Shown here one piece after another: positions 7,408 to 53,226 of a stretch of 64,000 nucleotides of DNA. Each line of letters begins with the position of its first letter. Position 1 is the stretch's first letter. The stretch comes from Bdellovibrionia bacterium (lineage in GTDB: Bacteria; Bdellovibrionota; Bdellovibrionia; Bdellovibrionales; JAGQZY01), in NCBI GenBank assembly GCA_030424715.1, contig JAUHWH010000001.1:372001-436000 (forward strand), given 5' to 3'. The notes below the pieces were generated by a model. That model ran no database searches. It had not been told where the DNA came from and worked only from the letters and a program-made list of their open reading frames with translations. The position numbers and the translations under genes are program-made.

Positions 7408-8886
7408 ATGCAATTCAGTTTAAACGCGAAATCCCAATCTAACAACCTTATCCACTTTTACCATGTTGCTGGAAAAAGTAAAAAATTGCAGTTTTGCTCG
7501 TGCTGCAAGGGCAAAGAATCGCGCGCCGATGTCACTCAACAGTTTGAAAACGAACAATTGGAAGCCAGTTTTGGTGAAACGGTCTTCTATCGCGACAACT
7601 CAGAAGGACACCAGCTTTTTGTAGGACTCGGCGACGGAAAGGTCTCTGCCGAACAACTTCGGGAGCTGGCGAGTAATATTTATAAAAAGCTCATCGCTGA
7701 ACGAGTCAATGATATCAAATTCTCACTGGAGGCTTTACCTTTTCGAGATAAGGCCTCTGGCCTTGGCGCTTTGGTAGAGGGCTTTGTCATGAGTGCCTAC
7801 ACCTTCGACACCTTTAAGAAAAAACCAAAAAAGAAAAAGCCGGACCTTCAGGTCGACTTCACCTCCAAATCAAACAATGCGACAATGAAAAAAGCGCTTG
7901 AGGACGGACAAATTGTTGGCGAAGGCGTGAACTTCACGCGCTGGCTTGGCGACTGTCCCGGAAATTTTATGACGCCGTCACAATTGGCTGAAGAAGCCAA
8001 AACCGCCGCTAAGGGCACAAAGATGAAAGTGACCGCTTGGGATAAAGCAAAAATTGCCAAAGAAAATATGGATTCCCTTATTGGTGTTTCCAACGGGAGT
8101 GATGAAGAACCTCGCTTTATCATCATGGAATATCGAGGTGCCGCAGCCTCTAAAAAGCCCATCTGCTTTGTTGGCAAGGGTCTCACTTTTGATGCCGGGG
8201 GAATAAGTATTAAGCCCTCTGCCGGCATGGAAGAAATGAAGTTTGATATGTGTGGCGGAAGCGCTGTCATTGGTACCATGCGAACCATCGCGCGGCTGAA
8301 ACTGAAAGTGAATGTGATCGCCTTCGTGCCCGCCAGTGAAAACATGCCCGGACCGTCGGCCAATAAGCCCGGCGACATCCGCAAAGCACGCAATGGAAAA
8401 AGTATAGAAATCAACAATACCGATGCCGAGGGCCGACTCATTTTGGCCGACGCCCTTTGCTACGCCAGCGAGAAAAAGCCAGCCTGGATCGTCGACACCG
8501 CAACCCTAACCGGAGCAATGATGATTGCTCTCGGCAACACTCACACCGGCTTCTACACTCGTGATAAAAAAATGGCGGATCTTGTGAAAAAAGCGGGAGA
8601 ACAGTCCGGCGAAGAAGTCTGGCCCATGCCTCTTTGTGACCACCATTCAAAAGACATGAAAGGACATTACGCCGACCTGACGAACTTGGCCCCATCACGA
8701 CATGCTGGCAGCGCCACGGCCGCCGCCTTCCTTGAAAACTTTGTGGAAAAGGATATTCCGTGGGCCCATGTCGACATCGCTGGGACGGCTTGGCATGTGG
8801 GCAACCGTCAGTCTTATGCCCCATCGAAAGGTGCCAGTGGAGTTATGGTTCGCACTTTCGTGCAAATGGCTCGTAACCACAAATAA
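7408..8886 (+). CDS. pepA: Leucyl aminopeptidase, M17 family
   Basis: M17 aminopeptidases are cytoplasmic dimetal exopeptidases, usually hexamers, that remove N-terminal residues from peptides and finish degradation begun by proteases such as Lon and ClpXP. The 492-residue protein has the canonical metal ligands: Lys257 and Asp262 (GKGLTFDAGG), Asp280 (MKFDMCGG), and Asp339 and Glu341 (NTDAEGRL at 337-344). The N-terminal macro-like domain contains an unusual Cys cluster (FCSCC at 29-33) and a Lys-rich linker near 137-144. The RBS GAGAGGTG precedes the ATG. A TATAAT box at 7330 is the best -10 candidate, without a clear -35. Confidence 0.96.
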   Translation: MQFSLNAKSQSNNLIHFYHVAGKSKKLQFCSCCKGKESRADVTQQFENEQLEASFGETVFYRDNSEGHQLFVGLGDGKVSAEQLRELASNIYKKLIAERVNDIKFSLEALPFRDKASGLGALVEGFVMSAYTFDTFKKKPKKKKPDLQVDFTSKSNNATMKKALEDGQIVGEGVNFTRWLGDCPGNFMTPSQLAEEAKTAAKGTKMKVTAWDKAKIAKENMDSLIGVSNGSDEEPRFIIMEYRGAAASKKPICFVGKGLTFDAGGISIKPSAGMEEMKFDMCGGSAVIGTMRTIARLKLKVNVIAFVPASENMPGPSANKPGDIRKARNGKSIEINNTDAEGRLILADALCYASEKKPAWIVDTATLTGAMMIALGNTHTGFYTRDKKMADLVKKAGEQSGEEVWPMPLCDHHSKDMKGHYADLTNLAPSRHAGSATAAAFLENFVEKDIPWAHVDIAGTAWHVGNRQSYAPSKGASGVMVRTFVQMARNHK

Positions 8887-45409: not shown

Positions 45410-45833
45410 GCCTCACTGGTAGTACAAAATCCGGACCAGAATCTCCGCTGGCCAAATATTCCAAGTCTTTTATCTTCTCACGCAAAGGTTCAACGCAGTC
45501 CTTGGGGGTGAAGAACGAATCTAGAAGTTGCTGTAGCGAAAGCTTATCTTTGGCTATCGGGGTGGTCGTTCGACAAAGTCGACTGATAGCCTCATAAAGA
45601 CGTCGGTTTTCAGTGGTGGCCTGGATCGTCCCCAGATGGTCCCCCAAAAGCGGGATACAGGATATCGGAAAAAGTTTTCCACTCTGTTCGATGCGACAGC
45701 CCTCCGTAAGGCGCTTTCGACTATGAGTCGTCGCTTCTGCTTCCATTAGCTCTTCAATGTTTTGAGCTCCAAGGATCTCACTCCATTGAGCTTCTGCCCC
45801 GAAAGACGCTAAAAGTAAAAATAGGATTATCAT
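45375..45833 (-). CDS. Secreted protein between Tad-like genes and the kinase
   Basis: The 152-residue protein has a signal peptide (MIILFLLLASFGAEA), then a helical mature part with four cysteines (EGCRIE, ISCIP, RLCRTT, KDCVEP), likely two disulfides. Its ATG overlaps the TadC-like stop by one base (TAATG) and its end overlaps the kinase by 35 nt. No family recognised. Its coupling suggests a ligand or periplasmic partner of the kinase or of the Tad-like proteins. Confidence 0.75.
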   Translation of the reverse strand: MIILFLLLASFGAEAQWSEILGAQNIEELMEAEATTHSRKRLTEGCRIEQSGKLFPISCIPLLGDHLGTIQATTENRRLYEAISRLCRTTTPIAKDKLSLQQLLDSFFTPKDCVEPLREKIKDLEYLASGDSGPDFVLPVRHEKVKSTKNKL

Positions 45834-46258
45834 TAGTTCACCTCGTTTAAAAATTGCGTGATTAAAGGACCAAAAAGAAGAATGACATAAGCGGGAAAGA
45901 AGAAAAGCAACAACGGGATCGAAAGTTTACTTGGTAAAGTGCTTAAATAGGCCTTCCATTGTCGTTCAAACTCCGCCTCCATGGCGACTTCCAGAAGCTT
46001 GAGATGCTCATACACCGGGGCCCCCGAAAGCCCGTTGGCCACGATGTCCATAAAGCTTTTTTGATAGTGGGTATGAAACAGCTCTGCCCCCGAAAGTCCT
46101 TGCTTCTGGAAATCGCAGTACCACAAATAGACTTGCACCGAGAAGCTTGTCTTCTCGGCACCGATCGCTTCATCGAGAGCACTGGCAACAGAAACCCCAC
46201 CCTCGAGTGCTGATCTGAAAGTCTTTAAAAAGGATATCGATGGAACTATATGCGCCAT
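45833..46258 (-). CDS. TadC/GspF-like membrane protein
   Basis: The 141-residue protein looks like the last part of a type II secretion F (T2SSF) domain. It has a helical region with SALEGGVSVASALDEAIGAE, SFMDIVANGLSGAPVYEHL and FERQWKAYLSTLPSKLSIPL, followed by a hydrophobic end (LLLFFFPAYVILLFGPLI) like TadC. RBS GGAG is well placed. It overlaps the TadB-like gene by 13 nt. It is short for TadC, which is usually about 300 residues. No Tad ATPase, pilin or secretin is nearby. Confidence 0.7.
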   Translation of the reverse strand: MAHIVPSISFLKTFRSALEGGVSVASALDEAIGAEKTSFSVQVYLWYCDFQKQGLSGAELFHTHYQKSFMDIVANGLSGAPVYEHLKLLEVAMEAEFERQWKAYLSTLPSKLSIPLLLFFFPAYVILLFGPLITQFLNEVN

Positions 46259-47010
46259 TTTTTACTCCGAACGATCATTAAAAGTGAAACCAATCCAAAA
46301 AAATAGCAGGAGAAAGACAAAAAAAGAGCCGTTTTGTAGGTGGAAAAATGAAATTCCGAAACAATATAAGCCAACAATCCGAAGTAAATGACACTCATTA
46401 AGGCCAGTTGATAATGGAAATACAACCAAATCTGTCTCGACTTTTGTCGAAAATTGAGACGGTCCTGCAATTTTTTTTGCATATTACACAGCCTATCAAT
46501 TGCTTGATGTTGGTTCCTATGAACAGCCCTCAATTCTTCTAGTGTCTGTCCTATGAACCGACCAAAAACACCCTTATAAGCCACCTCTTCTTGTTGTGAA
46601 AAAACAACATTTTCATAGAGGCGCTTGAGAAGGAGGTCCTGCTTCCACTTTTCCGACTGCAGAGCCGTCTCAAATGAGGAAAGAAAGGATATCCCCCTCT
46701 GCATAGAGAGAATCACCATTGAGAGGAATCGGAGAAACTCGCCATAGAACTGTTGTTGCTGGAAATGTACGGTTAAAAATAGAACCACTGGAAAAACCAA
46801 AAGTGATCCGAAACTCAACAACCAAAACCAAAATGGTTGGAGAAAAAAATAGAAATAGAGAGTGAGAATTAAAACAAAATGATAAGTGCCAATTTTTGTC
46901 ATGACTTTTAAAGAGAGAATGTGTTGTTTTTTAAATAGCGAATAAATCCGGTTTACGAATAGTAATACGGACATAAAAATCAGTAGTGAAACGAAAGCAT
47001 TCTTCAACAT
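46246..47010 (-). CDS. TadB/GspF-like membrane protein
   Basis: The 254-residue protein has N-terminal helices (about 1-20, 40-85), a cytoplasmic T2SSF-like core (about 90-190, FLSMVILSMQRGISFLSSFE with ENVVFSQQEEVAYKGVFG) and two C-terminal helices. The arrangement is that of TadB, the inner-membrane platform of Flp pili. It is probably the first gene of the run to uppP. Absence of the other Tad genes means the platform either works with proteins encoded elsewhere or has a separate role. Confidence 0.7.
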   Translation of the reverse strand: MLKNAFVSLLIFMSVLLFVNRIYSLFKKQHILSLKVMTKIGTYHFVLILTLYFYFFLQPFWFWLLSFGSLLVFPVVLFLTVHFQQQQFYGEFLRFLSMVILSMQRGISFLSSFETALQSEKWKQDLLLKRLYENVVFSQQEEVAYKGVFGRFIGQTLEELRAVHRNQHQAIDRLCNMQKKLQDRLNFRQKSRQIWLYFHYQLALMSVIYFGLLAYIVSEFHFSTYKTALFLSFSCYFFGLVSLLMIVRSKKWRI

Positions 47011-47133: not shown

Positions 47134-47433
47134 ATGGCAAAGAAGAAACGTACTACTAAGAAGAAGACGACTCGCAAAAAAGCGACTCGTAAGAAAGCAA
47201 CTAGTCGCAAAACTAAGAAAAAGGCGACTAAAAAGAAAAAGAAGAAAGTAACTAAGAAGAAGGCGACTCGCAAAAAAGCGAAGAAAAAAGCCACTAAGAA
47301 GAAGGCTAAGAAAAAAGCCACTAAGAAAAAGGCTAAGAAAAAGGCCACTAAGAAGAAAGCTAAGAAAAAAGCTAAAAAGAAGACGACTCGCAAAAAAGCG
47401 ACTAAAAAGAAGACAACTCGTCGTAAAAAGTAA
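47134..47433 (+). CDS. Histone H1-like Lys/Thr/Ala/Arg repeat protein
   Basis: The 99-residue protein is made almost entirely of Lys, Thr, Ala and Arg, with a 9-residue repeat of the form KKKATKKKA in the middle (27-bp DNA repeat). This composition is that of bacterial histone H1-like DNA-condensing proteins, such as chlamydial Hc and the KAKK-type tails seen in delta-proteobacteria. It should bind DNA non-specifically and compact the nucleoid. The RBS GAGGAGG is very strong. It has its own promoter and terminator, so it may be highly expressed, perhaps by growth phase. Composition excludes assignment by ordinary motifs. Confidence 0.85.
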   Translation: MAKKKRTTKKKTTRKKATRKKATSRKTKKKATKKKKKKVTKKKATRKKAKKKATKKKAKKKATKKKAKKKATKKKAKKKAKKKTTRKKATKKKTTRRKK

Positions 47434-47672: not shown

Positions 47673-48296
47673 TTAGAAAAAGTAATTAAAGCCCACCGAA
47701 GCTGTGGGGGCACCACGAAAGTCATCAATCGACATTAAGAAGAGGGCTTCTATAAAAAGCCCATAGCCCAACCACGGCCCATTGGTGAAAGTGTATTGCA
47801 TCCCCAATGAACCATGCACAATATCTTTATCGATTTGTCCGGTTCGGCGATCGGATTCGGACATGAATTCATTGGCAACAAATCCGGGAGACACATCGGC
47901 GGCATTAAAAGGGCGCGTGGTGGTGCGCTGCCACCGATTCAACCCGACACCGATATAGGGATTCAGTGGTGATGAGAGAAGCAGCATTTTCTTTACTCGG
48001 AATCCAAAAGACTGAAAGTGACTGCCCCCACCAAAGCCGAGGTCAACGCTCCATTGGGGATGAAAGTGGATTCCAACAATGCCGCCCAACAGCCCGTAGG
48101 CTCCAGCCGTAGCAACACCGACACCCACTTTGCGCTGGGACCAAAAGGTGGAGACCTCACGAGCTTCTGGTGTTCTGTCATAATTGAAGCGACTTTGCTT
48201 TTTCGGTGGCTCCACAGAATCGGTCCATAAAATGGCCGAATGGGCGGGAGACATCACGCCCAAACACAAAATCAAACCAAGAAGCTTCGCTATCAC
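47673..48296 (-). CDS. Outer-membrane beta-barrel-like protein coupled to the MCE operon
   Basis: The 207-residue protein has a signal peptide (MIAKLLGLILCLGVMSPAHS). A series of amphipathic beta strands alternating with turns follows (SVDLGFGGGSHFQSFGFRVK, LNPYIGVGLNRWQ, HGSLGMQYTF, GYGLFIEALF), and the chain ends in ASVGFNYFF, the C-terminal aromatic typical of barrels. It overlaps the MCE-domain gene by 4 nt (ATGA), so it is translated from the same operon. This suggests an outer-membrane end for the lipid transport path. I cannot place it in MlaA or other known families. Confidence 0.8.
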   Translation of the reverse strand: MIAKLLGLILCLGVMSPAHSAILWTDSVEPPKKQSRFNYDRTPEAREVSTFWSQRKVGVGVATAGAYGLLGGIVGIHFHPQWSVDLGFGGGSHFQSFGFRVKKMLLLSSPLNPYIGVGLNRWQRTTTRPFNAADVSPGFVANEFMSESDRRTGQIDKDIVHGSLGMQYTFTNGPWLGYGLFIEALFLMSIDDFRGAPTASVGFNYFF

Positions 48297-49072
48297 AAGG
48301 AAACCCTCGCCTTAATGCCCTCTTCTTGTAAAAAGCTACGAATCTCTTTTTCCTCAATTTTTTCGAGCTTCTTCAACAAATCGCGCATCGAGATCAGCAT
48401 ACTCTTTATGTCACCTTTGTTGGCATCTTTTAAAAGAACCGTCATCTCTCGACTGAGAGTGCTAATTTGAGTAACCAATCCCGTGTATTCTTTGTTTTGA
48501 CTGATTTTATCAATGGTTCCTAGGACTTTGTTGAGTCCGACCACGAGGTCACTGATCGAGCCAATCGTTGAGGTGACTGAGCTCTCATTGTCTTCAACCA
48601 CTGATAAAATTTTACCCGCTAGAGCATATCCCTGAGAAATAAGCTGGTCGACCCGTGGAGGGTCTGTTCCTCGAACAATGGTTCCGGGAGTGACCTGGGG
48701 ACTGGCCGAGCCTCCAGGTGAAATCTCCAAATACTTTTCACCGATAATACCGGCCATATTAATGAAATAGTCACTGTCTTCACGGATAACGGGCCACGCT
48801 TTTTCACTCACCTTAATATGGATGTGCAACTTCACCTCTTCACCGGCTTCGGACTTATAATCGGGCCGAAACTCAACTTTTTCGACCTTACCCACTTTCA
48901 CACCCATGAGGCGAACGTGGGACCCTTGCTCGAGGCCTCCCACAAAGTTGTAGGCGACAACGACCCGCTTGTAGCTGCCAAAAAAGGCGAACTGTCCTAA
49001 AAAAGAAACGAACACAACAACCGACAGGGTTGCCAATAAAAATAAAAGTGCCACTTTGGTTTGTGAGGTCAT
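48293..49072 (-). CDS. MCE-domain protein, MlaD-like
   Basis: ATG 49072 lies 8 nt after the second permease. The 259-residue protein has one N-terminal membrane helix (about 5-27) and a single MCE domain (about 33-115, YNFVGGLEQGSHVRLMGVKV, then GIIGEKYLEISPGGS). A long helical C-terminus follows with periodic hydrophobics. MCE proteins form hexameric rings that carry lipid across the periplasm, and longer helical tails can form needles or bridges. The RBS is weak (GAGAG). The tail is longer than in E. coli MlaD. Confidence 0.93.
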   Translation of the reverse strand: MTSQTKVALLFLLATLSVVVFVSFLGQFAFFGSYKRVVVAYNFVGGLEQGSHVRLMGVKVGKVEKVEFRPDYKSEAGEEVKLHIHIKVSEKAWPVIREDSDYFINMAGIIGEKYLEISPGGSASPQVTPGTIVRGTDPPRVDQLISQGYALAGKILSVVEDNESSVTSTIGSISDLVVGLNKVLGTIDKISQNKEYTGLVTQISTLSREMTVLLKDANKGDIKSMLISMRDLLKKLEKIEEKEIRSFLQEEGIKARVSL

Positions 49073-49080
49073 TTTTTCTC

Positions 49081-49815
49081 TCAGTAAAAGGATGAAAACA
49101 CTAACGTTAATATAAAGTCTAATACGATTATACAAATTGAGGAAGAGACAACACTCTTTGTTGTCGCGCGGCCAACTCCACCGGCTCCAGGCTCACAAGT
49201 CATGCCATAGTAGCAGCTCACCAGAGGAATGATCCCGCAAAACAGCGCTCCCTTTATTAAAGAAAACCCGAGATCTTTCATTAAAACAAAACGTCGAAAA
49301 GCTGTCATAAAAAAAGCCATACTTTGGTCAAGGCTCCATGTTGTCACAAGAGCTGCAGTCAACAGACAGACAGCATTGGCGATCAAACTCAACAAAACTC
49401 CTGCAATAAGACAAGCCACCAAACGGGGGAGCACCAGGTAGTTAAACGGATTGATTCCCAAAAGCTTCAAAGCATCGATTTGCTCAGAGATCTTCATCTG
49501 ACCCACTTCAGCCGCTATCCCCGCGCCAATTTTTGCCGCCAGTAGCAGTGACATCACAACCACGGCCAGCTCCCTCACAATCAGCATCGATGCAAAGCCT
49601 GGCACTAAACTATCGTCGTGTAAAACAAGCTTCATGTGAAACGAAGCCTCTAGAATAGTCACAGCAGCGGCAAACGAAACGCAAACCACAATAATATTGA
49701 GACTCTTAAAGGCCAAATGATCGAGATATTTCACAACCTCTTTCACTCGCACCCCTTGTTGAAAAAGGCTTTGCAGGGTTTCGATGAGGAGAGACGCAAA
49801 AGTCACTTTAAACAT
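49081..49815 (-). CDS. MlaE-type permease, second
   Basis: This 244-residue MlaE/YrbE permease has about five membrane helices and the coupling motif AEVGQMKISEQIDALKLLGI followed by NPFNYLVLPRLVACLIAG. It differs clearly from the adjacent permease (EQIDAIRCLGSDPIREV), so the complex can hold two different subunits, as in mycobacterial YrbEA/YrbEB. It overlaps the first permease gene by 8 nt. Confidence 0.93.
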   Translation of the reverse strand: MFKVTFASLLIETLQSLFQQGVRVKEVVKYLDHLAFKSLNIIVVCVSFAAAVTILEASFHMKLVLHDDSLVPGFASMLIVRELAVVVMSLLLAAKIGAGIAAEVGQMKISEQIDALKLLGINPFNYLVLPRLVACLIAGVLLSLIANAVCLLTAALVTTWSLDQSMAFFMTAFRRFVLMKDLGFSLIKGALFCGIIPLVSCYYGMTCEPGAGGVGRATTKSVVSSSICIIVLDFILTLVFSSFY

Positions 49816-50563
49816 TGATCAAGCCTTCCAAGATAAAGGTGGTGAACCAATCGGCTACGACAAGAGCGATCATGGTTTGCGTTGCGGCCTGGACCACACC
49901 ATCCCCCACTTCTTTCGCGCCCCCGAAGACTGTGTAGCCTCGGTAGGTACATATGGTGGCGATGACTAACGAAAAGACAAAGCATTTCACTACACCACTT
50001 AAAATAGAAAACCCGGAAACGACTCGTGGGATTTGGCTCAGGTACTGCTCCCAGGGCAATCCGCTAAAAGTCGTCGCCATCAGCAGACCGCCGAAAAATG
50101 AAAACAGCAGGCCAAAACTCAGCAGAAAAAAGCTGGCGATAATAATTCCCAAAAAGCGAGGTACGATCACCTCTCGTATCGGGTCAGAGCCCAAACAACG
50201 AATGGCATCGATCTGCTCACTCACCTTCATGGTTCCAAGCTCTGCCGACGTGAAGGCTCCAATTTTACCGCTCAAAAGAAAGGCAATAAGAAGCGGTCCA
50301 ACCTCTCGAACCGTGGCACTGGTGACCAAGGCACCCAAATACGACAAAGCACTAAACATCTGTACCTGTAAGGTGAACTGCAACGTCATAATCGCCCCCA
50401 CAAAAAAACCAGCAAACACCGTGGTTGCGAGACTCTGTTGGATGACGAGCAGGGATTTATCGAAAATCTCTTCGCGACGACGCCAAGAGCCCAAGGCACT
50501 TCTAAGAACCGTGCCTAGATACATCAACAAATCACCTAAACCGTTGAGGGAGCGCACGATCAT
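49808..50563 (-). CDS. MlaE-type permease, first
   Basis: This 251-residue MlaE/YrbE permease has the core AELGTMKVSEQIDAIRCLGS and DPIREVIVPRFLGIIIAS, plus a longer N-terminal region (FDKSLLVIQQSLATTVFAG). Together with the following permease it probably forms the transmembrane heterodimer of the MCE transporter. Its ATG overlaps the second ATPase stop (ATGA). Confidence 0.94.
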   Translation of the reverse strand: MIVRSLNGLGDLLMYLGTVLRSALGSWRRREEIFDKSLLVIQQSLATTVFAGFFVGAIMTLQFTLQVQMFSALSYLGALVTSATVREVGPLLIAFLLSGKIGAFTSAELGTMKVSEQIDAIRCLGSDPIREVIVPRFLGIIIASFFLLSFGLLFSFFGGLLMATTFSGLPWEQYLSQIPRVVSGFSILSGVVKCFVFSLVIATICTYRGYTVFGGAKEVGDGVVQAATQTMIALVVADWFTTFILEGLINV

Positions 50564-51291
50564 GGTGCCCCCACTTCGGCGAGGAAGTCTTGAATGAGAG
50601 GAATAGTGCTTTCTTGCATCTCTGCGGGAGTGCCCTGGGTGAGCAAGTGCCCTTTGTCCAGGACGACAATATGATCCGCCACTTTCAAGGCGCTTTCCAT
50701 ATCATGACTAACAACCAAGGAGGTCGTACCCAGTTGATTGGAAAGATCTAAGATCAACTGATTCACCCGACTCGTTGAGATCGGATCCAAGCCCGTTGTG
50801 GGCTCGTCGAAAAGCAATATTTTAGGCTTCAGTGCGATCGTTCGTGCTAGACTCACCCTTTTTTTCATCCCGTAGGAGAGCTCATGGCTTTGCTTGGCCT
50901 CTATACCTTTTAGGCCAACATGCCCCAGGCTTTCCTCGACTCGGCGAGACACTTCCTCCTCACTCAATTCAAAGTGTCTCCGCAGACCGTAAGCCACATT
51001 TTCAAATACATTCAAATTGTCAAACAGAGCGGGTTGTTGAAAGACCATCCCACATATTTTTCGAACATCCATCATTTCATGCTCGCTCATCTGATGAACC
51101 GGGAAACGATCCACATAAAGTTCACCAGAATCCGGTTTTAGCAAACCCACAATGTTTTTTAAGAGGACGGACTTTCCGGTACCAGACATTCCAAGAATAA
51201 AAACGATTTTGCCTTGGGGAATTTCTAAATCCAGCTCATTGAGGATCGTGCGTGCCCCAAAACTCTTAGTGACCTTCTTGAACGCAATCAC
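50560..51291 (-). CDS. MCE-transporter ATPase 2 (consensus Walker B, LSYGM signature)
   Basis: The start is GTG 51291, preceded by GGAGG and overlapping the first ATPase stop (GTGA); a longer frame lacks an RBS. The 243-residue MlaF-like ABC ATPase has Walker A GMSGTGKSV (34-42), VFQQ Q-loop, Walker B LLFDEP with Glu163, and H-loop His196 (VVSHD). Its signature is LSYGM (138-142), Tyr where MlaF-like proteins have Gly (LSGGM). It is consensus at the residues it contributes to its own ATP site but not in the signature it lends to its partner. Confidence 0.94.
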   Translation of the reverse strand: MIAFKKVTKSFGARTILNELDLEIPQGKIVFILGMSGTGKSVLLKNIVGLLKPDSGELYVDRFPVHQMSEHEMMDVRKICGMVFQQPALFDNLNVFENVAYGLRRHFELSEEEVSRRVEESLGHVGLKGIEAKQSHELSYGMKKRVSLARTIALKPKILLFDEPTTGLDPISTSRVNQLILDLSNQLGTTSLVVSHDMESALKVADHIVVLDKGHLLTQGTPAEMQESTIPLIQDFLAEVGAP

Positions 51292-52061
51292 AAGGCCTCC
51301 AGTGGGCCGTTGACGTCGCCTCTGATAAATTGTTGGACTCTGGGGTCGGCAAAGGCTTTTGTGTCTTCTGCGCTGCCGGTTTTCAAAAACTCTCCAGGAA
51401 AGCACACCATACAGCGCCCCGCCAGCTGATAGGCTCGCATCATATCGTTAGTCACCGTGACTATGGTGGCGCCCCATTTTTTTTGAAGCTCTAGAATCAT
51501 ACTAACAATCTTTCGACTGGTGATCGGATCCAGACCCGCTGTTGGATCGTCATAAAACACCAGCCGAGGCTTCAAAACCAAAGCACGGGCGATACCCAAA
51601 CGCTTTTGCATTCCACCACTGATTTCGCTCGGGAAGTGATCCAAGACGTGGTCCAAGCCGACGGCTTCTAAAGTCTCCAAAATATCATCTTTGCGATCCA
51701 GAGCCTGCTGAATGCCCTCGACCTCCTCGATCACAAACCGCAGGTTTTCAAAAACGGTCATAGAGTCAAAAAGGGCATTTTGCTGAAACAGCATCCCGAC
51801 CTCGGCCAAGTGCTCCTCGCGCAATTTTTTGCTAAGCGTTGAAAGGTCGTGCCCACGATATAAAACCGCACCCGATTGCGGCTTCAAAAGACCGGCCATC
51901 AGCTTCAGGAGGGTGCTTTTTCCACTGCCACTGGGGCCCACCAAAACCAACGAATCGCCCTCAAACAGCTTGAGATCGAAGTCTTTTAAGACCTCATGAC
52001 CATCAAAGCCCAATGAAGTCGATTTTAGCTCGATTATTGGGGCATCCTTGCCGACATCCAT
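51288..52061 (-). CDS. MCE-transporter ATPase 1 (Walker B Asp, H-loop Asn)
   Basis: ATG 52061 has RBS AAGGTGAG; a TTG at 52085 is less likely. The 257-residue ABC ATPase has Walker A GPSGSGKST (42-50), Q-loop FQQ and signature ISGGM (147-151). Walker B reads FYDDP, with Asp172 in place of the catalytic Glu, and the H-loop reads VTNDM, with Asn205 in place of His. Its own ATP site is therefore degenerate, while its signature is intact. This pattern complements ATPase 2, so a heterodimer would have one consensus and one degenerate site. It is the first gene of the operon; a -10-like TATACT lies at 52086-52091. Confidence 0.94.
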   Translation of the reverse strand: MDVGKDAPIIELKSTSLGFDGHEVLKDFDLKLFEGDSLVLVGPSGSGKSTLLKLMAGLLKPQSGAVLYRGHDLSTLSKKLREEHLAEVGMLFQQNALFDSMTVFENLRFVIEEVEGIQQALDRKDDILETLEAVGLDHVLDHFPSEISGGMQKRLGIARALVLKPRLVFYDDPTAGLDPITSRKIVSMILELQKKWGATIVTVTNDMMRAYQLAGRCMVCFPGEFLKTGSAEDTKAFADPRVQQFIRGDVNGPLEAL

Positions 52062-52281
52062 GATCTCACCTTTCAATCCAACCAAAGTATACTCCGAGTC
52101 ACCCGAGAAATGCAGTGAGAAGTTATGTGGTCTTGCGCCGTCAGCATCCAGAATCTTTGTCTGAATTTTGTCGGGATAGGTTTACTCTCAGCAGTCTTGG
52201 GTATAAGAAGAGAGAACACTAAAAAGTCGATTTCTATAGCCAAGTCCAATGCTGGACCTGCCACGCGCGGAGGAAAAATTT

Positions 52282-53226
52282 ATGAGTCACACGAGAAAAA
52301 AAATCACTGTTGTAGGCGCCGGATTTGTCGGCTCGACCTGTGCCCACTGGGCGGCCTCAAAAGAACTGGGCGATGTTGTATTGATGGATATCAATGAAGG
52401 CTCTGCTAAGGGCAAGGCACTCGACTTGTTTGAAGCCTCTCCTGTCGAGGGTTTTGATTCGAAGGTCACTGGAACTGCCGACTACAAAGACATTGCCGGC
52501 TCTGATATCGTGATTGTCACCGCTGGACTTCCCCGCAAACCCGGCATGAGCCGTGATGATCTTCTCGCAACCAACGCAAAAATCATGAAAACCGTGTGCG
52601 AAGGCATCAAGGAGTTTGCTCCTCAATCGACTGTGATCATCGTTTCGAACCCGCTGGACGCTATGGCCATGGTAGCCAAAGAAACCCTTGGCTTTCCCCG
52701 TGAGCGCGTGATTGGAATGGCCGGCATCCTTGATGGAGCTCGCTTCCGCTCCTTTATTGCCGAAGAAACAGGCATTAGCGTTAAAGACATCAACGCCTTT
52801 GTTTTGGGCGGCCACGGCGACACGATGGTCCCCATGCCCCGTCACTGCTCCATCGGCGGCGTTCCCCTAACGGAAATGCTTCCCAAAGAGAAAGTCGACG
52901 CACTGGTTGAGCGCACCCGTAAAGGTGGCGCTGAAATCGTGGGGCTTCTTAAAACCGGATCGGCTTATTATGCTCCTTCAGCCAGTGCCGTTGAGATGGC
53001 CGAGGCCATACTAAAAGACCAAAACCGAATTCTCCCTTGCGCCGCCTTTCTCGAAGGAGAGTATGGCATCAACGGTATGTTCATCGGTGTTCTCTGCCAG
53101 CTTGGCAAGAATGGTCTAGAGAAGGTCATCGAACTGAAACTCAACGACGAAGAAAAAGCTGGACTGGAAAACTCTCGCCAACACGTAGAAGAACTTTTAA
53201 CTGCACTTAAAAAATTAGACTACTAA
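52282..53226 (+). CDS. mdh: Malate dehydrogenase
   Basis: ATG 52282 follows CGGAGGAAA, a strong RBS; the longer frame from 52249 is rejected. The 314-residue NAD enzyme is of the LDH-like MDH type. It has the Rossmann motif [22 protein letters not shown] with the substrate arginines that mark malate rather than lactate, and catalytic His178 (GGHGDTMVP). It leads mdh-sucC-sucD-ndk, 9 nt before sucC. The 220-bp gap before it holds a TATAAG at 52202 with a weak -35 TTTACT. Confidence 0.96.

What the first reader, a model, noticed from the sequence alone, without database searches (positions are those of the whole stretch)
47673..52061. MCE/Mla-type transporter with two different ATPases whose defects map to one ATP site
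Seen: two ABC ATPases and two MlaE permeases lie next to one MCE protein. ATPase 1 has Asp172 for the Walker B Glu and Asn205 for the H-loop His, but a normal ISGGM signature. ATPase 2 has normal Walker B (Glu163) and H-loop (His196), but the signature LSYGM. Known: in heterodimeric ABC transporters, each ATP site uses Walker A/B and H-loop of one subunit with the signature of the other. All three deviations therefore fall in one composite site and the other site is fully consensus. This is the pattern of asymmetric transporters, but it is not the homodimeric MlaF plan or the mycobacterial plan with a single MceG. It suggests an asymmetric lipid importer or exporter.
Basis: partly seen in the sequence, partly recalled or inferred. 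Interest (0 to 1): 0.75.

Follow-up and report, generated by a model that had tools for sequence, protein, structure and literature searches.

The report
Lopsided two-ATPase MCE lipid transporter
In predatory Bdellovibrio-type bacteria, a lipid transporter of the Mla/MCE family is powered by two different ATPases whose sequence damage all falls in one of the two ATP pockets; this layout is conserved across the phylum, although its homologues elsewhere use two identical, fully working ATPases.

Summary
The operon (- strand, 52061 to 47673) encodes ATPase 1, ATPase 2, two MlaE permeases, one MCE protein and a predicted outer-membrane barrel. I read 65 operons of this kind from 15 families of the same phylum (Bdellovibrionota; Bdellovibrio bacteriovorus has it). 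ATPase 2 has Tyr/Phe for the third signature residue in 65/65. ATPase 1 has Asn/Ser/Thr for the H-loop His in 64/65. The Walker B Glu-to-Asp change is in 45/65, so it is not universal. Over the catalytic motif positions counted, one composite site carries 176 deviations and the other none. Related single-ATPase operons, inside and outside the phylum, are almost all full consensus. No two-ATPase operon with two consensus sites was found. Best explanation: an obligate ATPase 1:ATPase 2 heterodimer with one hydrolysing and one degenerate, ATP-holding site, as in CFTR, BSEP or TM287/288, on an MlaE-type transporter. Complex formation, activity and transport direction are inferred, not shown. New variant of a known kind. 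In passing, a third MCE operon in these genomes was found whose only ATPase is degenerate throughout.

The parts
51288..52061 (-). ATPase 1 (MlaF-like; Walker A intact, Walker B Glu to Asp172, H-loop His to Asn205, signature ISGGM intact)
50560..51291 (-). ATPase 2 (MlaF-like; GTG start overlapping the ATPase 1 stop; signature LSYGM with Tyr140; Walker A, Q-loop, Glu163, His196 intact)
49808..50563 (-). MlaE permease PER1 (PF02405)
49081..49815 (-). MlaE permease PER2 (PF02405)
48293..49072 (-). MCE/MlaD protein: N-terminal TM helix, one MCE domain, C-terminal helices (low confidence in the model)
47673..48296 (-). predicted 8-stranded outer-membrane beta-barrel, OmpA/OprF-type fold; last gene of the operon

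Best explanation
The operon encodes one MlaE-type (type VIII) ABC transporter built on a PER1:PER2 permease pair and an obligate ATPase 1:ATPase 2 pair, with a ring of the single MCE protein above it and possibly the OM barrel as outer-membrane partner. Each of the two ATP pockets uses Walker A, Walker B, Q-loop and H-loop of one ATPase and the signature of the other. Site 2 (ATPase 2 catalytic motifs plus ATPase 1 SGGM) is full consensus and should hydrolyse ATP. Site 1 (ATPase 1 Walker A plus Asp172/Asn205, facing ATPase 2 LSYGM) keeps the ATP-binding Lys, Ser and Gln but lacks the H-loop His, usually the catalytic Glu, and the signature Gly; it should bind ATP and hydrolyse it poorly or not at all. 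The transporter would then cycle on one hydrolysis event, with ATP at site 1 held or slowly exchanging. SHOWN: gene content, residues, phylum-wide conservation, and the mapping of deviations to one site given established ABC geometry. INFERRED: heterodimer assembly, one-site hydrolysis, lipid substrate, role of the barrel. NOT DETERMINED: import or export.
For: 65/65 operons are asymmetric. Site 1 has 176 deviating cells (H-loop 64, Walker B 45, signature G-to-Y/F 65, next Gly 2); site 2 has none at the same motif positions. An unbiased scan of 54 columns conserved at 90% or more in single-ATPase controls picks out E172 and H205 of ATPase 1 and G140 of ATPase 2; the other strong departures lie outside the catalytic residues or are conservative. 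Only the heterodimer yields any fully consensus site: a homodimer of either would be defective in both. Controls: Walker B and H-loop almost invariant; 53/53; 20/20 MlaF-type ATPases of the same phylum; 60 ATPases, one SQGM. Trees: ATPase 2 is one clade (SH-aLRT 99), ATPase 1 with its solitary relatives another (99), PER1 (100) and PER2 (99) are each one clade, so the pairing is old. Published parallel: in ABCB11 loss of the catalytic Glu goes together with a signature Gly-to-Arg change, and moving the whole set into ABCB1 restores the turnover that the Glu mutation alone abolishes (PMC7544095).
Against: No complex was modelled or isolated. 20 of 65 ATPase 1 proteins keep the catalytic Glu and one keeps the H-loop His (L045), so site 1 may retain some activity. 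ATPase 1-like proteins also occur away from any permease, so the family can act outside this operon. Where ATPase 1 and ATPase 2 are separated by 1.7-2.4 kb (L056, L061) or about 1.2 kb (L062) their co-assembly is less certain.
Confidence: 0.85

Rival explanations
1. Two separate homodimeric transporters share an operon: ATPase 1 with one permease and ATPase 2 with the other.
For: Two ATPases and two permeases are present; mycobacterial Mce1 uses an ATPase homodimer under a permease heterodimer (PMC9882608).
Against: Each homodimer would carry a lesion in both pockets, in 65 of 65 operons; only one MCE gene is present; the deviations are complementary. A permease heterodimer with a homodimeric ATPase would need only one ATPase gene.
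Confidence: 0.06
2. ATPase 1 is a decaying copy: relaxed selection after a duplication, with no mechanistic meaning.
For: Glu-to-Asp and His-to-Asn fall in the same protein; ATPase 1 is more variable than ATPase 2 (mean column identity 49% against 57%).
Against: Its Walker A Lys, Q-loop Gln, Walker B Asp, D-loop Asp and SGGM are invariant in 65 of 65, and the partner protein carries a matching, invariant signature change. ATPase 1 is an old clade present in 15 families.
Confidence: 0.04
3. Both sites hydrolyse: Asp172 and Asn205 still support catalysis and the Tyr signature merely tunes affinity, so the machine is only mildly asymmetric.
For: 20 ATPase 1 proteins keep Glu and one keeps His; Asp is a conservative change.
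Against: His and signature Gly losses are near-universal here and almost absent in the single-ATPase controls; Glu-to-Gln in E. coli MlaF lowers ATPase activity by about 80% (PMC7784689).
Confidence: 0.2
4. ATPase 1 is chiefly a regulatory subunit that can be exchanged for its solitary relatives, so that the transporter has alternative partners. (Compatible with the best explanation, an addition rather than a replacement.)
For: Solitary ATPase 1-like genes without a permease nearby, 11 of them forming a clade beside the operon copies.
Against: Many two-ATPase genomes show no solitary copy among the hits listed (a truncated list); no physical link shown.
Confidence: 0.15

Closest known systems
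E. coli-type MlaFEDB (type VIII ABC lipid transporter)
   Same: MlaE-family permeases, MlaF-like ATPases, MCE protein with an N-terminal TM helix; the best solved relatives of ATPase 2 and both permeases are Mla chains.
   Different: MlaFEDB has one ATPase gene and one permease gene (homodimers), MlaB, and the partners MlaC and MlaA. Here there are two of each, no MlaB-like gene in the operon, and no MlaA or MlaC in the genome.
Mycobacterial Mce1 transporter (YrbE1A/YrbE1B, MceG, Mce1A-F)
   Same: Two different MlaE-family permeases form the channel (PMC9882608).
   Different: Mce1 has a homodimer of one ATPase, MceG, and six MCE proteins; here there are two ATPases and one MCE protein.
ABC transporters with one degenerate ATP site (CFTR, ABCB11/BSEP, MRP1, TM287/288, TAP)
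   Same: Two different nucleotide-binding domains; catalytic Glu and/or H-loop His lost in one and a signature Gly replaced in the other, all in one composite site (PMC7544095; the CFTR details, LSHGH signature and NBD1 lacking Glu and His, are from memory).
   Different: Those are mainly exporters or a channel with another transmembrane fold. To my knowledge no MlaE/MCE transporter with this layout has been described, and the literature searches made here found none.

Membership tests
MlaE/MCE (type VIII) ABC transporter | MlaE permease domain PF02405 | tested here: met
   187 and 197 bits, cut-off 22.5
MlaE/MCE (type VIII) ABC transporter | MCE/MlaD domain protein PF02470 in the operon | tested here: met
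   56.7 bits, cut-off 25.1
MlaE/MCE (type VIII) ABC transporter | MlaF-type ATPase next to the permease | tested here: met
   MlaF is the best NCBIfam model for ATPase 2 and the second for ATPase 1, though both are far below the equivalog cut-off of 441 bits; tree and PDB relatives agree
Canonical Mla pathway | single ATPase gene giving a homodimer | tested here: not met
   two ATPase genes with complementary lesions
Canonical Mla pathway | MlaA (PF04333) and MlaC (PF05494) in the genome | tested here: not met
   no match; E. coli and Caulobacter controls ring
Mycobacterial Mce | one shared MceG ATPase and six MCE proteins | tested here: not met
   two ATPases and one MCE gene in the operon
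Degenerate-site heterodimeric ABC | two different NBDs with one consensus and one non-consensus composite site | tested here: met
   (sequence level)
Degenerate-site heterodimeric ABC | the two NBDs assemble together and only one site hydrolyses | not testable with these tools
   needs purification and ATPase assays; the structure tool predicts single chains only

The most novel reading that the evidence does not exclude
Genomes of this phylum run three MlaE/MCE lipid transporters with two, one and zero consensus ATP sites: a canonical homodimer, this half-degenerate heterodimer, and a third operon whose only ATPase has lost the Q-loop Gln and H-loop His in 31 of 31 copies and the Walker B Glu in 30 of 31. 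The zero-site system would be a lipid conduit that works without hydrolysing ATP, and the one-site system an intermediate, ATP-gated design.
Probability: 0.2. Interest if true: 0.85.

Novelty: new variant of a known kind. Interest (0 to 1): 0.62.

Why it matters
The well-studied Mla and Mce transporters use symmetric ATPase pairs, and the direction in which Mla moves lipids is debated. A natural, phylum-wide asymmetric version lets one ask which ATP site drives transport by changing one residue in one subunit. It also suggests that the one-working-site design of CFTR, BSEP and TM287/288 arose again on an unrelated transporter fold. Bdellovibrio bacteriovorus, a genetically tractable predator, carries it.

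Tried and rejected
A heterodimer model could not be made with a single-chain predictor limited to unchanged window or locus sequences, so none was attempted. [quoted passage not shown] unbiased controls came. The idea that solitary ATPase 1 genes come with their own permeases was rejected: none lies nearby in the loci read. The idea that every two-ATPase operon has lost the Walker B Glu was rejected: 20 of 65 keep it. No paper on a two-ATPase MCE system, or on MCE systems of Bdellovibrio, was found; the library is open-access only. The MCE model (pLDDT 64.5) is too weak beyond the MCE domain to use.

Full report
OBSERVATION. The operon lies on the minus strand between a divergent mdh gene (52249-53226, +) and a lysine-rich histone-like ORF. 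Gene order is ATPase 1 (52061-51288), ATPase 2 (51291-50560, GTG start overlapping the previous stop), MlaE permease PER1 (50563-49808), MlaE permease PER2 (49815-49081), MCE protein (49072-48293) and a last gene (48296-47673). Walker A Lys, Q-loop Gln, Walker B Asp and D-loop Asp are intact in both.

COMPARATIVE TEST. A search of 291 genomes of the same phylum gave 80 regions that I fetched and parsed. 65 operons, including the window, hold ATPase 1, ATPase 2 and PER1, nearly always in the same order with PER2 and MCE; by the family codes they come from 15 families. Motifs were read from an alignment. ATPase 1: H-loop N 57, S 5, T 2, H 1; Walker B second acidic residue D 45, E 20; signature S-G-G 65/65. 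ATPase 2: Walker B E 65/65; H-loop H 65/65; third signature residue Y 59, F 6. Summed over the catalytic motif positions of each composite site (Walker A Lys, Q, D, E, H of one subunit and S-G-G of the other), site 1 carries 176 deviating cells and site 2 none. The single His exception is L045, the closest relative. On a tree built without the two columns, Walker B needs at least 4 changes, so Glu-to-Asp is probably a later, partly repeated step, while His loss and the signature change are shared by nearly all members.

CONTROLS. MlaF-type ATPases of single-ATPase operons were read in four sets; 72 proteins, Glu in 71 and His in 70 (this set was found with an SGGM pattern, so its signature is not evidence); 53 of 53 fully consensus, mostly from the phylum of a Syntrophaceae genome; 20 of 20 in a family of the same phylum in which no two-ATPase operon was seen; 60 proteins from two searches in other phyla, consensus except one SQGM, and no second ATPase in any locus. 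Sets 42 and 72 overlap in part. An unbiased scan of 54 columns conserved at 90% or more in controls singles out H205, E172 and the signature Gly; the remaining strong departures (ATPase 1 K17, V50, I157; ATPase 2 T151 and hydrophobic swaps) lie outside the catalytic residues or are conservative.

HISTORY. In the ATPase tree ATPase 2 is one clade (SH-aLRT 99) among MlaF proteins; ATPase 1 with its solitary relatives is a separate clade (99). PER1 (100) and PER2 (99) are each one clade. The pair is therefore old. Named carriers include Bdellovibrio bacteriovorus strain kdesi (L129) and several Bdellovibrionales MAGs.

MECHANISM. The geometry is established for ABC proteins (PMC7544095) and for MlaF (PMC7784689): each ATP is held between Walker A of one subunit and the signature of the other. 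Homodimers of ATPase 1 or of ATPase 2 would be defective at both pockets; only the heterodimer has a fully consensus pocket. The simplest reading is a heterodimer in which site 2 hydrolyses and site 1 mainly binds ATP. ABCB11 is an instructive parallel: it lacks the catalytic Glu of site 1 and has a matching signature Gly-to-Arg change; the Glu mutation alone traps ABCB1, while the full set restores turnover. Tyr or Phe at the signature of ATPase 2 could play that releasing role here (inference). Substrate is presumed lipid from the family; direction is open. The last gene is predicted to be an 8-stranded barrel with OmpA/OprF-type neighbours (mean pLDDT 79.5; TM-scores are modest), and MlaA and MlaC are absent from the genome, so the barrel may be the outer-membrane partner (inference).

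COMPARISON. The parts are those of an MlaE/MCE transporter, and the ATP-site layout is that of degenerate-site ABC transporters. It is neither the MlaFEDB plan (homodimer) nor the Mce1 plan (permease heterodimer over an MceG homodimer with six MCE proteins; PMC9882608). No description of a two-ATPase MCE transporter was found, within an open-access library only.

SIDE FINDING. The window's genome has two other MCE operons: a canonical one on C3 (L126) and one on C12 (L125) in which an MlaE permease, an ATPase and an MCE gene overlap. The C12 ATPase has no Walker A, no signature and no H-loop His, yet still matches PF00005 weakly. Relatives occur in 86 of 291 genomes of the phylum; all 30 fetched copies lie between an MlaE permease and an MCE gene. 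In 31 copies the Q-loop Gln and the H-loop His are always lost and the Walker B Glu is kept once, although the Walker A Lys survives in most (26 scored as Lys, two of them in copies whose Walker A is otherwise gone). This conserved dead-ATPase MCE system deserves its own study.

Noticed in passing
L125:4589-7076 (window's genome, contig C12); relatives L207-L236: A third MCE operon (MlaE permease, ATPase, MCE) whose only ATPase is degenerate: no Q-loop Gln or H-loop His in 31 of 31 copies, Walker B Glu in one, signature mostly PGR; in the window's genome Walker A is gone too. Family found in 86 of 291 genomes.
   Followed up: partly
L074, L077, L081, L085-L087, L089, L093, L094, L097, L098, L103: Solitary ATPase 1-like genes with no permease nearby, 11 of them in one clade, Walker B Asp, H-loop His/Asn/Ser/Pro; in several a divergent gene of about 190 aa lies upstream.
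   Followed up: partly
L063:1733-6229 and L131: ATPase 1 beside isocitrate and malate dehydrogenase genes, as in the window's mdh neighbourhood, but followed by two full-length ABC exporter genes instead of ATPase 2 within the stretch read.
   Followed up: no
L138, L170 (near 8001-8750): Alphaproteobacterial MlaF-like ATPases with Ser for the H-loop His and no MlaE permease found beside them by phmmer.
   Followed up: no
window 45833-47010 (-): A short T2SSF-domain protein (141 aa) next to a 254 aa membrane protein without a Pfam match, followed by a Ser/Thr kinase-like protein.
   Followed up: no
window 47134-47433 (+): 99 aa ORF made almost wholly of Lys/Ala/Thr/Arg repeats, like a histone H1-type tail.
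   Followed up: no
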